In this document: piece by piece, positions 27,834-32,854 of the stretch
Position numbering within the stretch: the stretch's first letter is position 1
Layout of the letters: each line of letters starts with the position of its first letter
Source of the DNA: Planctomycetaceae bacterium
GTDB lineage: Bacteria; Planctomycetota; Planctomycetia; Pirellulales; UBA1268
Direction: 5' to 3'
Length of the DNA stretch: 53,090 bases
Assembly (NCBI GenBank): GCA_947453375.1
Contig: CANGGT010000006.1
Span: 1-53,090, forward strand
Translations under genes and position numbers: made by a program
The notes under the pieces: generated by a model
Told to the model about the DNA's origin: nothing
Database searches by the model: none
Seen by the model: the letters and a program-made list of their open reading frames with translations, nothing else

Positions 27834-29147
27834 TTGGCCCACGTTGAAACCCGCCTTCCTTATAAGGTCGCCGATCTCGCGCTCGCCGACTGGGGCCGCA
27901 AGGAGATCATGCTGGCCGAAAACGAGATGCCGGGCCTGATGGCGCTGCGTCAGAAGTATGGCCGGAGCAAGCCGCTGGCCGGGGCCCGGATTGCGGGCTG
28001 CCTCCACATGACGATCCAGACGGCCGTCCTCATCGAGACGCTCAAGGAACTCGGTGCGGAAGTGACCTGGAGCAGCTGCAACATCTTCTCGACGCAGGAC
28101 CACGCCGCTGCGGCCATCGCCAAGGCCGGCTTCCCGGTCTACGCCTGGAAGGGTCAGACGAACGAGGAGTTCGACTGGTGCATTGAGCAGACGCTGTTCT
28201 TCCCCGACGGCCAGCCGCTCAACATGATCCTCGACGACGGCGGCGACCTCACGTCGATGGTCCACACCAAGTATCCGGAACTGCTCGGCGGCATCCGCGG
28301 CCTCTCCGAGGAGACCACCACGGGGGTCCACCGCCTCTACCAGATGCACGAGAACGGCGATCTCAAACTCCCCGCGATCAACGTCAACGACTCCTGCACG
28401 AAGTCGAAGTTCGACAACCTCTACGGCTGCCGTGAGAGCCTCGCCGACGGCATCAAGCGGGCCACCGACGTGATGGTCGCCGGCAAGGTGGTGGTCGTGT
28501 GCGGCTACGGTGACGTCGGCAAGGGCTCTGCCCACTCGATGAAGGCCCTCGGGGCACGCGTCATCGTCACCGAGATCGACCCGATCAACGCCCTCCAGGC
28601 GGTGATGGAGGGCTACGAGGTGACCACGATGGAGGAGGCCGCTCCGCGGGGCCAGATCTTCGTGACGGCCACCGGCTGCCGCGACGTGATCCTCGGCGAG
28701 CACATCTCGAAGATGCCCAACGACGCGATCATCTGCAACATCGGGCACTTCGATCTCGAGATCGACGTTTCGTGGCTCGAGAACACGAAGGGGGTCAAGA
28801 AGGTCGAGATCAAGCCGCAGGTCGATCGCTACACCCTCCCCTCCGGCAACTCGGTGATCGTGCTGGCTGAGGGGCGGCTCGTGAACCTCGGCTGTGCCAC
28901 CGGCCACCCGTCGTTCGTGATGAGCACGAGCTTCACCAACCAGGTCCTCGCCCAGCTGGCCCTCTGGACAGAGACCGACAAGTACGATGTCGGCGTCCAC
29001 CTCCTCCCCAAGAAGCTCGACGAGGAAGTGGCCCGCCTCCACCTCGAAAAGCTGGGGGTCAAGCTCACGAAGCTCACCCCGAAGCAGGCGGAGTATCTCC
29101 ACGTGCCGGTCGAAGGCCCGTTCAAGCCCGAGTACTACCGGTATTGA
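27834..29147 (+). CDS. ahcY: Adenosylhomocysteinase (TTG start)
   Basis: [79 protein letters not shown] aaggaga before TTG. Confidence 0.96.
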
Positions 29148-29194
29148 GTGCGTCGCCGGGAGCCCCCCGGCGGCAGCCGTTCGTCGCACTCCAG

Positions 29195-29230
29195 ACGGGG
29201 GTGTCGCCCAGGCGACACCCCCGTTCTCTT
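29195..29230 (+). terminator. Rho-independent terminator after ahcY
   Basis: acgggggtgtcgcc-ca-ggcgacacccccgt then tctctttt. Confidence 0.9.
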
Positions 29231-29251: not shown

Positions 29252-29265
29252 GTTCCACGTGGAAC
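29252..29265. promoter_or_regulatory. parS-like site 1
   Basis: GTTCCACGTGGAAC, perfect palindrome with CACGTG core. Confidence 0.8.
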
Positions 29266-29372
29266 CGGGCCGGACTCCGGCCGCTCCCGCGAGCCACTTT
29301 GCCGGAAGGGATTTGCTACGATCCCGGGACACCGTTCCCCTCCCCCCGCACCCCGAGGAAGCTCCCTCCGCC

Positions 29373-30680
29373 ATGCCCCACGTCGCCCCGCTCCGCGGCC
29401 TCCGCTACGACCCCAAGCACGTCGGCGCCCTGTCGCAGGTGATCGCCCCCCCGTACGACGTCATCGACGCGGCGCTCCAGGAGGCGCTCTACCAGCGGCA
29501 CCCCGCCAACGTGATCCGGATCGAGCTGAACCGGGAGGAGCCCGGCGATGACGAGCGGACGAACAAGTACACCCGGGCTGCGAAGTTCCTCCGCAGCTGG
29601 CGCGACCAGGGGGTGGTGATGCAGGAGCCGGCCGCGGCGCTCTACGTCTATCACCAGGAGTTCGAAGTCGAGGGACGGACGTTTGTCCGCCGGGGGGTGA
29701 TGGCCCGGGTCAGGCTCGAGCGTTTCGGCACCGGCAACATCCATCCCCACGAAGAGACGATGTCGGGCCCGAAGCAGGATCGGCTCCTCCTCACGCGGGC
29801 CTGCCGGGCAAACCTCAGCCAGGTGTTTGGCCTCTATCCCGATCCCCAGGGTGAGGTGCAGGCCCTCCTCGATGCGGCCGTGGCCGGGCAGCCGCCGCTG
29901 GAGGCCACTGACCATCTCGGCGTGAAGAGCTGGATGTGGCCGCTCACCGACGAAGCGGTGGCGGCCAAGGTGGCCGGGCTGATGGGGCCGAAGCCGGTGT
30001 TCATCGCCGACGGTCACCACCGGTACGAGACCGCCTGCAATTACCGGGATGAGGTGGCAGAGGCCAACGGAGGCACGCTCCCTTCCGATCATCCCGCCAA
30101 CTTCGTCCTCATGATGCTCGTTGGAATGAGCGACCCGGGACTGGTCGTCCTCCCCACCCACCGGCTGTTCGTCGAGCCCTCGGTGGCCACTGCGGCCGAC
30201 CTGGCCGCGAAGCTCGGCGACTGTTTCACGACCGAGAAGGCCGGCGTCGGGCCGGCGGCCGCCGCTGACGTGTGGGAGCAGATCGAGACCGAGGATGCCC
30301 AAGGGACGCTCGGCCTCTACACCGCAGGCGACCGCACCTGGACGCTCGCCCGGATCACCCCCGCCGGCGCCGCCCGGATGGAGAAGATCGCGGCCGAGCA
30401 TGGCCCGTCCTGGCGGGGGCTCGGGGTGTCGATTCTTCACCGGCTCGTGATCGGCGAGCTCCTCGGCGCGAAGCAAATCCCCACCCCCGGCTACGTGCAC
30501 CTCGTCCGCGAGGTGGTGGAGGGGCTCGAGACCGGGAAGTATCCCCTCGCAGCCCTCGTCATGCCGGCGAGCGTCGGCGACATCAAGAGCGTCAGCGAGA
30601 CCGGCGAACGGATGCCCGCCAAGAGCACCTACTTTTATCCGAAGCTCGCCAGCGGACTGGTCTTCAACCCGCTCGATTGA
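29373..30680 (+). CDS. DUF1015 family protein
   Basis: PLRGLRYDPKHVGALSQVIAPPYDVIDAALQEALYQRHPANVIRIELNRE; KPVFIADGHHRYETACNYRDE. Confidence 0.92.
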   Translation: MPHVAPLRGLRYDPKHVGALSQVIAPPYDVIDAALQEALYQRHPANVIRIELNREEPGDDERTNKYTRAAKFLRSWRDQGVVMQEPAAALYVYHQEFEVEGRTFVRRGVMARVRLERFGTGNIHPHEETMSGPKQDRLLLTRACRANLSQVFGLYPDPQGEVQALLDAAVAGQPPLEATDHLGVKSWMWPLTDEAVAAKVAGLMGPKPVFIADGHHRYETACNYRDEVAEANGGTLPSDHPANFVLMMLVGMSDPGLVVLPTHRLFVEPSVATAADLAAKLGDCFTTEKAGVGPAAAADVWEQIETEDAQGTLGLYTAGDRTWTLARITPAGAARMEKIAAEHGPSWRGLGVSILHRLVIGELLGAKQIPTPGYVHLVREVVEGLETGKYPLAALVMPASVGDIKSVSETGERMPAKSTYFYPKLASGLVFNPLD

Positions 30681-30730
30681 CGGCTGCGTGACTTCGAGCG
30701 GCGATCCGGCTGATCCGGGAGCCGAGCGGC

Positions 30731-30744
30731 GTTCCACGTGAAAC
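30731..30744. promoter_or_regulatory. parS-like site 2
   Basis: GTTCCACGTGAAAC, matches the core of the classical bacterial parS consensus. Confidence 0.9.
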
Positions 30745-30813
30745 CGTGCCACCCCGGAGACCTGGGTGGCCTGCGGGCACAGGGGCCCTTGGGTAACCCT
30801 GCGCGGTCGCGCG

Positions 30814-30827
30814 GTTTCACGTGGAAC
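30814..30827. promoter_or_regulatory. parS-like site 3
   Basis: GTTTCACGTGGAAC, exact reverse complement of site 2. Confidence 0.9.
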
Positions 30828-30912
30828 TTTCCCCGAGGTCGCCAAGCGGCTCGCCGGACGTTTGCGGCAACCTTGCACGACAGAACGGTTGGAACGCCCT
30901 GCGGTTCCCGGC

Positions 30913-31737
30913 ATGACGATCGTGCCGGCGGAAGCCGATATTCCGGTTGTTCCCAGAATTCCCTGGGAAACACCTGGAAGGGATCTGCGTGTGGGAAGGA
31001 TTCTGTGCGTGGCCAACCAGAAGGGGGGCGTGGGGAAAACCACCACCGCGACCAACCTTGCCGTCGGCCTCGCCAAGGGGGGCCAGCGGACGCTGTTGGT
31101 CGATCTCGACCCGCAGTGCAACGCCACGTCGGGGCTCGGGGCCGTCCCGGCGGCGACCCATCCCCTCGTGTCGGAGGCCCCGCTTTGCGGCTCGGTGATC
31201 GAGACCGGCGTGGCAGGCCTCTCCCTCCTTCCGGGGAGCCGAAGCGTCCGCGACGTCGAACGGCTGGCGACGCTCGCCCGGAGCGGCAGTTTTGTCCTCG
31301 AGACCCATCTTGCCGGCGGGCTCAATGCCTGGGACTACTGTCTCATCGATTGCCCGCCCTCGATCGGCGACCTCACCCGGACGGCCCTGGCCGGGAGCAC
31401 GGAGGTCCTGATGCCGATCCAGTGCGAATACTTCGCCCTCGAGGGGCTGACGCAGATGATCGAGGTGATCCGCGACGTGATGGACGAGCGTCCCGGCCGG
31501 CTGCGGTTCGGGGGGATCGTCCTCACGATGCACGACGACGATCTGGAGCTGACCCGCGAGGTGGAGAACGAGGTTCGGGACTTCTTCGGGGAGATCGTCT
31601 TCGAGACGGTCATCCCCCGTGACGTGGCGGTGTCGGAGGCTCCCAGCCACGCCCGTAGCGTCCTCGATTACGCGCCGCGCTCGAGGGGAGCGCGGGCCTA
31701 CACGGAATTGTGCATGGAGGTTCGGGACTTTGAGTAA
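30913..31737 (+). CDS. parA: ParA chromosome-partitioning ATPase
   Basis: RILCVANQKGGVGKTTTATNLAVGLAKGG, LLVDLDPQCNATSGLG, LIDCPPSIGDLTRTAL; exact start uncertain (GTG 30991 also possible). Confidence 0.95.
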   Translation: MTIVPAEADIPVVPRIPWETPGRDLRVGRILCVANQKGGVGKTTTATNLAVGLAKGGQRTLLVDLDPQCNATSGLGAVPAATHPLVSEAPLCGSVIETGVAGLSLLPGSRSVRDVERLATLARSGSFVLETHLAGGLNAWDYCLIDCPPSIGDLTRTALAGSTEVLMPIQCEYFALEGLTQMIEVIRDVMDERPGRLRFGGIVLTMHDDDLELTREVENEVRDFFGEIVFETVIPRDVAVSEAPSHARSVLDYAPRSRGARAYTELCMEVRDFE

Positions 31738-32854
31738 GGAACGACGTCTGGGTCGGGGACTGGAAGCACTGCTCGGCCGTGCGGGGCTCGACCCGCAATC
31801 GACCCCCGCCCCCCCGCAGACCGACGGCACCGGCGCCCTCGCCGCCCAGCCCGCTCCCCTTCCGGGGCGGCCCGTGGAGATTCCCGGCAAGGGGATCGGT
31901 GGCCTCGGTACCGGTGCCGCCCGCCTCATCCTCCACGCGCCGGAGGAGGTCGAGCAGGCGGCCGCGACGCTGCCGGTGAGCGAGGTCGATCCAGTGCTGG
32001 TCGATCCGAATCCCTGGCAGCCCCGGTCGGTCGTCGACGACGGGGCCCTCGCCGAGCTCACCGCCAGCCTCGGGGAGCACGGCCTCGTCCAGCCGATCGT
32101 CGTCCGGGCGCGGGGCGACCGCTACCAGCTCATCGCCGGCCAACGCCGCCTGGCGGCGGCCCGTCGGCTGGGGTGGGCGAAGCTCCCCGTCCGCGTCCTC
32201 GACGTCGACGACCGGCAGATGTCGGAGATCGCGATCGTCGAGAATCTCCAACGCCGCGACCTCGACGCCCTCGAGAAGGCGGCGAGCTTCAAGACCTATC
32301 TCGCCGCCTGGGGATGCACGCAGGACGAACTCGCCAAGCGGCTCTCGATCGACCGTTCGAGCGTTACCAACCTCATCCGTCTCCTCGAGCTTCCCGAGGG
32401 GGTGCAGCAGCGCCTTCGGGCGGGCGAGATTTCGATGGGTCACGCCCGGGCCCTGCTCCCGCTCGGAGACGAGCACGAGCAGCTGAAGCTCGCGCAGCGG
32501 ATCGTGGTCGAGGGTCTCTCGGTCCGGGCGATCGAGGGGGAGGTGCAGGAGATCCTCCGCGCCGACGAGGATGATCCGAGCTTGGCCGACGACGACGGCA
32601 TCTCGACGGCCGTGGCGGACGGCGAGGGGGATGACGACCTTCCCTCTCCCGCCGCACCGACCGCGACGAAGCGGAAGCCGGGGCGGCCGGCGACGAAGCG
32701 AACGGCGCAGGTGCAGGCCGTCGAGGCGCAGTTACGGAGGGCCCTGGGGACGAAGGTCGTCGTCCATGCCAACGGCAAGGGGGCGGGGCGGATCGTGATC
32801 CCGTTCGGCGATCTCGGCGAATTCCAGCGTCTCTTGCAGCAAATCAGCGGGTGA
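31730..32854 (+). CDS. parB: ParB partition protein (probable TTG start overlapping parA stop)
   Basis: SKERRLGRGLEALLG; VDPNPWQPRSVVDDGALAELTASLGEHGLVQPIVVR; AIVENLQRRDLDALEKA; HTH QDELAKRLSIDRSSVTNLIRLLELPE. Confidence 0.95.
   Translation: MSKERRLGRGLEALLGRAGLDPQSTPAPPQTDGTGALAAQPAPLPGRPVEIPGKGIGGLGTGAARLILHAPEEVEQAAATLPVSEVDPVLVDPNPWQPRSVVDDGALAELTASLGEHGLVQPIVVRARGDRYQLIAGQRRLAAARRLGWAKLPVRVLDVDDRQMSEIAIVENLQRRDLDALEKAASFKTYLAAWGCTQDELAKRLSIDRSSVTNLIRLLELPEGVQQRLRAGEISMGHARALLPLGDEHEQLKLAQRIVVEGLSVRAIEGEVQEILRADEDDPSLADDDGISTAVADGEGDDDLPSPAAPTATKRKPGRPATKRTAQVQAVEAQLRRALGTKVVVHANGKGAGRIVIPFGDLGEFQRLLQQISG

What the first reader, a model, noticed from the sequence alone, without database searches (positions are those of the whole stretch)
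29252..30827. Three parS-like sites bracket a DUF1015 gene next to parAB
GTTCCACGTGGAAC (29252), GTTCCACGTGAAAC (30731) and GTTTCACGTGGAAC (30814). The last two are exact reverse complements and match the core of the conserved bacterial parS (TGTTNCACGTGAAACA). They lie in the promoter regions of the DUF1015 gene and of parA, 0.1-1.7 kb from parA. This points to a nucleation centromere in a lineage with little studied segregation, and to possible ParB control of DUF1015 and parAB.
Basis: partly seen in the sequence, partly recalled or inferred. Interest (0 to 1): 0.68.

Follow-up and report, generated by a model that had tools for sequence, protein, structure and literature searches.

The report
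Chromosome centromere with altered ParB clamp
The three short DNA motifs are almost certainly the bacterium's centromere (parS), where the ParA/ParB machinery starts pulling the copied chromosomes apart; that is ordinary, but the ParB protein of this whole family of uncultured planctomycetes carries the very amino-acid change that, engineered into Bacillus ParB, abolishes its CTP-splitting activity, which is worth testing.

Summary
GTTYCACGTGRAAC occurs exactly at 29252, 30731 and 30814, and nowhere else in the 4.51 Mb draft genome (about 0.03 copies expected by chance). All 11 congeners also have exactly three copies; 38 of 40 relatives have at least one. The order ahcY, DUF1015, parS pair, parA, parB is conserved across the order (Pirellulales). 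In the genus, the only invariant 14-bp block between ahcY and DUF1015 is the third site. ParB keeps the parS-reading residues (R209, G237). These are parS sites of a chromosomal ParABS system.

The proposed ParB control of DUF1015 is not supported. Three family members have lost the DUF1015 orthologue but kept the sites, and the third site lies upstream of the likely promoter core.

In one complete relative, parS lies about 0.1 Mb from the GC-skew minimum, while dnaA lies near the maximum; other chromosomes were inconclusive.

New point: ParB in this family reads GQRRLA instead of GERRxR (Q in 52 of 52; E in 61 of 63 sequences from other families of the order; one origin). This equals B. subtilis E78Q, which abolishes CTP hydrolysis. 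Either the clamp is naturally slow or locked, or catalysis has been rewired as in KorB. Not decidable by sequence.

The parts
29252..29265 (.). parS site 3, GTTCCACGTGGAAC (perfect palindrome), between ahcY terminator and DUF1015
   Evidence: Exact match; the only fully invariant 14-bp block of the ahcY-DUF1015 intergenic region in 10 congeners, 100% invariant inside against 26% outside.
30731..30744 (+). parS site 1, GTTCCACGTGAAAC
   Evidence: Exact match; conserved in all 9 congeners aligned, changes only at the degenerate Y/R positions.
30814..30827 (+). parS site 2, GTTTCACGTGGAAC, reverse complement of site 1, 83 bp from it
   Evidence: Exact match; 83-bp spacing repeated in G001, G002, G003, G004, G005, G006, G008, G010 and G011.
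30991..31737 (+). parA (Walker-type ATPase); probable GTG start (an upstream in-frame ATG at 30913 is not conserved)
   Evidence: PF13614 E 1e-42; 82-99% identity in the family.
31730..32854 (+). parB, TTG start, overlaps parA; ParB_N, HTH_ParB and ParB_C domains; P-motif GQRRLA at residues 137-142
   Evidence: Pfam; PDB relatives Spo0J, Noc, ParB; family-specific E to Q at residue 138.
29373..30680 (+). DUF1015 gene lying between the parS sites; conserved neighbour, not shown to be a regulatory target
   Evidence: PF06245 E 1.1e-86; synteny; orthologue lost in three relatives that keep sites.
27834..29147 (+). ahcY (adenosylhomocysteinase), conserved upstream neighbour
   Evidence: PF05221 E 3e-136; synteny.
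29194..29225 (+). intrinsic terminator of ahcY, separating ahcY from parS site 3
   Evidence: 14-bp stem, 10 G-C pairs, T-rich tail.
29312..29324 (+). candidate extended -10 element of DUF1015 (TTTGCTACGATCC)
   Evidence: TGCTAC-ATC kept in all 10 congeners; inference only, the sigma-70 scan reports no promoter.
30858..30893 (+). conserved non-coding element downstream of parS site 2, possible parA promoter region
   Evidence: Well conserved in 9 congeners; function not tested.

Best explanation
The three motifs are the parS centromere of the chromosome. Shown by sequence: canonical palindromes, present only here in the genome, under strong purifying selection, next to a single complete parAB operon whose ParB has the parS-type recognition residues. 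Inferred from characterised ParABS systems: ParB dimers nucleate on the sites, bind CTP, close into clamps that slide over neighbouring DNA (covering DUF1015 and the parA upstream region), and ParA moves the loaded region to the daughter cell; SMC-ScpAB is probably recruited (ScpB is present). DUF1015 is a conserved passenger inside the centromere rather than a demonstrated ParB target. The ParB of this family carries a natural E to Q change in the catalytic P-motif (GQRR), so its clamp cycle may be slower than usual or catalysed differently; that step is not decided.
For: Exact sites, only 3 in the genome, 0.03 expected. 11 of 11 congeners have exactly 3, 38 of 40 relatives at least 1, and 108 of 140 good genomes of the phylum have at least 1. 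Synteny ahcY-DUF1015-parS-parA-parB across many families of the order. The only invariant 14-bp block equals site 3; in the pair, changes occur only at Y/R positions. ParB has HTH_ParB, R209 and G237 aligned to R173 and G201, which are absolutely conserved in parS-binding ParBs (PMC7383237). Sites are kept when DUF1015 is lost. In complete relative G030, parS at 5.516 Mb lies about 0.1 Mb from the GC-skew minimum at about 5.42 Mb. ScpB is found in all 18 genomes tested.
Against: No binding data. The own genome is a draft (about 92% complete, 334 contigs), so further sites or the origin could be missing. The origin link is clear in only one of four complete chromosomes sampled; G186, G152 and G029 gave weak or no signal. 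In G029, parAB (0.886 Mb) is far from the nearest cluster of imperfect sites (5.307-5.326 Mb).
Confidence: 0.94

Rival explanations
1. ParB-parS here works mainly as a local transcription switch: site 3 controls DUF1015 and the pair autoregulates parAB, with segregation secondary.
For: Sites lie in the intergenic regions upstream of both genes, and the 83-bp pair in front of parA is conserved. Plasmid ParB relatives such as KorB silence promoters over more than 1 kb (PMC11790492).
Against: Three relatives lost the DUF1015 orthologue but keep sites. In G030, parAB is 8-9 kb from the sites. Chromosomal ParB usually has little effect on genes next to parS (review PMC7022226). In the window, site 3 lies upstream of, not on, the promoter-like element.
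Confidence: 0.08
2. The palindromes are operators of an unrelated dimeric regulator and lie beside parAB by coincidence.
For: CACGTG-centred palindromes are also bound by other regulators (own knowledge).
Against: Identity to parS; single-locus occurrence; co-occurrence with parAB across the order and often at parB in other families of the phylum.
Confidence: 0.02
3. Chance occurrence of a short palindrome.
For: None beyond the shortness of the motif.
Against: 0.03 expected in the genome against 3 within 1.6 kb; conservation at the base level in congeners.
Confidence: 0.001

Closest known systems
Chromosomal ParABS systems of Bacillus subtilis (Soj/Spo0J) and Caulobacter crescentus
   Same: parA-parB operon, canonical parS core, ParB_N/HTH/C domains, parS-type recognition residues, sites close to parAB, conserved ENLQR and RR of the CTP pocket.
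   Different: GERRxR is GQRRLA here; only three sites in 1.6 kb, one pair in front of parA and one in front of a DUF1015 gene; dnaA is not next to the locus in the relatives examined.
B. subtilis ParB E78Q and C. crescentus ParB E102A (engineered mutants)
   Same: Substitution at the same glutamate of the GERR motif; E78Q is the identical change.
   Different: Natural and fixed in a whole family here; accompanied by a non-R residue at 142 (mostly A), K176R and N179D and other family-specific changes that might compensate.
KorB of plasmid RK2
   Same: Natural loss of the GERR glutamate (GARRYR).
   Different: KorB binds OB sites and acts as a repressor; its recognition domain and site differ; it still hydrolyses CTP.
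Noc and its NBS site
   Same: Related fold; several relatives' third site carries C:G at position 6 in one half, as NBS does.
   Different: The window ParB has R209 and G237, not the Q and R of Noc, and lies with parA.

Membership tests
Chromosomal ParABS segregation system | parS palindrome (core GTTYCACGTGRAAC) | tested here: met
   Three exact copies, none elsewhere in the genome.
Chromosomal ParABS segregation system | ParA-type ATPase adjacent to ParB | tested here: met
   PF13614 and MipZ/ParA-type hits; KGGVGKTT P-loop; overlaps parB.
Chromosomal ParABS segregation system | ParB with ParB_N, HTH and C-terminal dimerisation domains | tested here: met
   All three Pfam domains over cut-off; best PDB relatives are Spo0J, Noc and ParB.
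Chromosomal ParABS segregation system | N-terminal ParA-stimulating motif LG-R/K-GL in ParB | tested here: met
   RRLGRGLEALLG at residues 5-16, nearly invariant; motif as given in PMC12704722.
Chromosomal ParABS segregation system | parS-type specificity residues R173 and G201 (Caulobacter numbering) | tested here: met
   R209 and G237 invariant in 52 of 52 family members (PMC7383237).
Chromosomal ParABS segregation system | CTP P-motif GERRxR with catalytic glutamate | tested here: not met
   GQRRL(A/F/L) in 52 of 52; G137, R139, R140, E171 and N172 kept.
Chromosomal ParABS segregation system | parS within the origin domain | tested here: inconclusive
   Met in G030 (0.1 Mb from skew minimum, 0 of 60 permutations as good); weak in G186 and G152; none in G029. 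Not testable in the draft itself.
Chromosomal ParABS segregation system | ParB binds parS and the locus drives segregation | not testable with these tools
   Needs EMSA, ChIP-seq or imaging.
Noc nucleoid occlusion factor | Q173/K179/K184/R201 recognition residues | tested here: not met
   R209, L215, E220 and G237 instead.

The most novel reading that the evidence does not exclude
A whole family of planctomycetes segregates its chromosome with a ParB whose catalytic glutamate is naturally glutamine, so that CTP hydrolysis is absent or very slow and clamps stay closed on DNA far longer than in model species. Segregation from only two or three parS sites would then rely on a clamp that is not recycled by hydrolysis, contrary to the current model.
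Probability: 0.27. Interest if true: 0.75.

Novelty: new variant of a known kind. Interest (0 to 1): 0.45.

Why it matters
The centromere itself extends a well-known system to an uncultured planctomycete family and shows a parS locus kept together with ahcY and DUF1015 across an order. The part that could change thinking is ParB: CTP hydrolysis is held to be needed to recycle ParB clamps, and the engineered E-to-Q change abolishes it in B. subtilis. Here evolution fixed the same change in an otherwise complete ParABS system. Measuring this protein would show either that segregation works without hydrolysis or that ParB has a second way to catalyse it.

Tried and rejected
Local skew in the 53-kb window shows no clear switch. 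Searches for papers on parS in Planctomycetota found nothing dedicated, DUF1015 papers nothing of use, and no paper in the library holds both GQRR and ParB. The motif parser missed 17 of 29 phylum-level ParB loci, so GQRR outside the order was only partly surveyed. parS-like matches inside trpF of several relatives (e.g. L068 at 4268) look like coding coincidence (conserved FRVKI codons). The AlphaFold model is confident only in the domains (mean pLDDT 79), holds no nucleotide and came without coordinates, so it does not settle catalysis.

Full report
Observation. The three 14-mers are at 29252, 30731 and 30814 with no mismatch. At the local base composition 0.03 copies are expected in 4.51 Mb; a scan of the whole draft genome finds these three and no other, with none for the reversed control pattern. 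All 11 other genomes of the genus also have exactly three, and 38 of 40 relatives at least one. Across the phylum, 108 of 140 good genomes have at least one, usually one to three.

Anatomy. Order on the + strand: trpF, ahcY, intrinsic terminator (29194-29225), parS site 3, DUF1015, parS pair 83 bp apart, parA, parB. parA most likely starts at GTG 30991 after GGAAGGGA; the upstream ATG 30913 is ACG in congener G010. parB starts at TTG 31730, overlapping parA.

Conservation. The order ahcY-DUF1015-parS-parA-parB recurs in many families of the order, including named Pirellula, Rhodopirellula and Bythopirellula relatives. In 10 congeners the ahcY-DUF1015 intergenic region has one fully invariant 14-bp window, and it is site 3 (100% invariant inside, 26% outside); in the pair the only changes are at the Y and R positions, which keep the parS pattern. 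This is strong purifying selection on the sites themselves.

Which gene do the sites belong to? In G013 and G023 the ahcY-parA interval has no DUF1015 gene but still has three sites, the outer one with one mismatch; G017 also lacks the orthologue and keeps sites after ahcY and before parA. A genome search finds only a 28-29% paralogue in these three. In the complete chromosome G030, DUF1015 and the sites stay together at 5.515-5.518 Mb while parAB lies 8-9 kb away. In G029 (Planctomycetales bacterium 10988), DUF1015 is at 5.277 Mb, five one-mismatch sites lie at 5.307-5.326 Mb, and parAB is at 0.886 Mb. The constant element is the site cluster as a chromosomal locus; neither promoter is its fixed partner. 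Control of DUF1015 by ParB is therefore unsupported. Autoregulation of parAB remains possible.

Origin. The draft cannot be tested. In G030 the GC-skew minimum is at about 5.42 Mb and parS at 5.516 Mb; no permutation of 60 fitted as well. The full-length dnaA (3.126 Mb, with Bac_DnaA_C) lies at the skew maximum. G186 (Lacipirellula limnantheis) and G152 gave weak fits and G029 none. I count the origin link as shown in one relative.

ParB. It has ParB_N, HTH_ParB and ParB_C, the N-terminal LGRGL motif, and Spo0J, Noc and ParB as nearest solved structures. R209 and G237 align with R173 and G201, which a published mutational study calls absolutely conserved in parS-binding ParBs (PMC7383237). So the protein should read parS.

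The unexpected part is the P-motif. Canonical ParB has GERRxR. This family has GQRRLA: Q138 in 52 of 52 sequences against E in 61 of 63 sequences from other families of the order, and A, F or L at 142 where the others have R or K. The tree needs a single origin, on a branch with 100/100 support. The remaining pocket residues tested (Q97, G137, R139, R140, E171, N172) are invariant. Two further fixed changes lie beside the ENLQR box, K176R and N179D. In the alignment with B. subtilis Spo0J the Q sits on the glutamate of GERR. B. subtilis ParB E78Q shows no appreciable CTP hydrolysis, entraps DNA, and gives a reduced but broadened ChIP profile; [quoted passage not shown] C. crescentus E102A binds CTP, does not hydrolyse it, and leaves DNA about 15 times more slowly (PMC8367383). 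Against a simple reading, RK2 KorB has alanine at this place (GARRYR) and hydrolyses CTP faster than C. crescentus ParB (PMC11790492). So the sequence predicts altered catalysis but cannot say whether it is lost or rewired. ScpB is present in all 12 family members tested, so SMC-ScpAB is probably available. No paper in the held library mentions GQRR together with ParB.

A smaller point: in other genera of the family the third site usually has one mismatch, and it is mostly the same one, A6 to C (GTTTCACGGGAAAC or GTTTCCCGTGRAAC; L176, L177, L179, L181, L182, L190, L192, L193, L201). Position 6 is one of the bases that distinguish parS from the Noc site (PMC7383237). This may be a kept weaker site; not tested.

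Verdict. The feature is a genuine chromosomal centromere of known kind, with high confidence. The regulatory reading is not supported. The ParB motif change is real at sequence level, family-wide and directly testable; its effect is inferred.

Noticed in passing
window 31730-32854, residues 137-142 and 176-179 of ParB: GERRxR replaced by GQRRLA, with K176R and N179D co-fixed in the whole family; equals the B. subtilis E78Q hydrolysis mutant.
   Followed up: partly
L176 -2408, L177 -2552, L179 -2568, L181 -2395, L182 -2388, L190 -2555, L192 -2667, L193 -2667, L201 -2683 (relative to parB start): The ahcY-DUF1015 site in other genera is mostly a one-mismatch hybrid with C:G at position 6 in one half, i.e. 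half parS, half Noc-site-like, and conserved.
   Followed up: partly
G031 (L089 and other contigs): A relative with 18 exact sites on many contigs instead of 1-3, and DUF1015 on a contig other than that of parAB; L249 is its close ParB relative.
   Followed up: no
G030 3.126 Mb; G186 3.921 Mb: The better-scoring, longer DnaA gene lies near the GC-skew maximum in G030 and far from parS in both; each record starts at a shorter second DnaA with a DnaA_C domain.
   Followed up: partly
G029 5.307-5.326 Mb and 0.886 Mb: Planctomycetales bacterium 10988 has no exact parS; five one-mismatch sites cluster about 30 kb from its DUF1015 gene while a divergent parA (45%) and parB lie 2.2 Mb away.
   Followed up: partly
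G173, G128, G168, G105 and others: In other families of the phylum one exact parS lies inside the parB gene itself.
   Followed up: no
window 30858-30893: Well-conserved non-coding element (TGCGGCAACCTTGC..GAC..AACGGTTG) between parS site 2 and parA; possible parA promoter.
   Followed up: no
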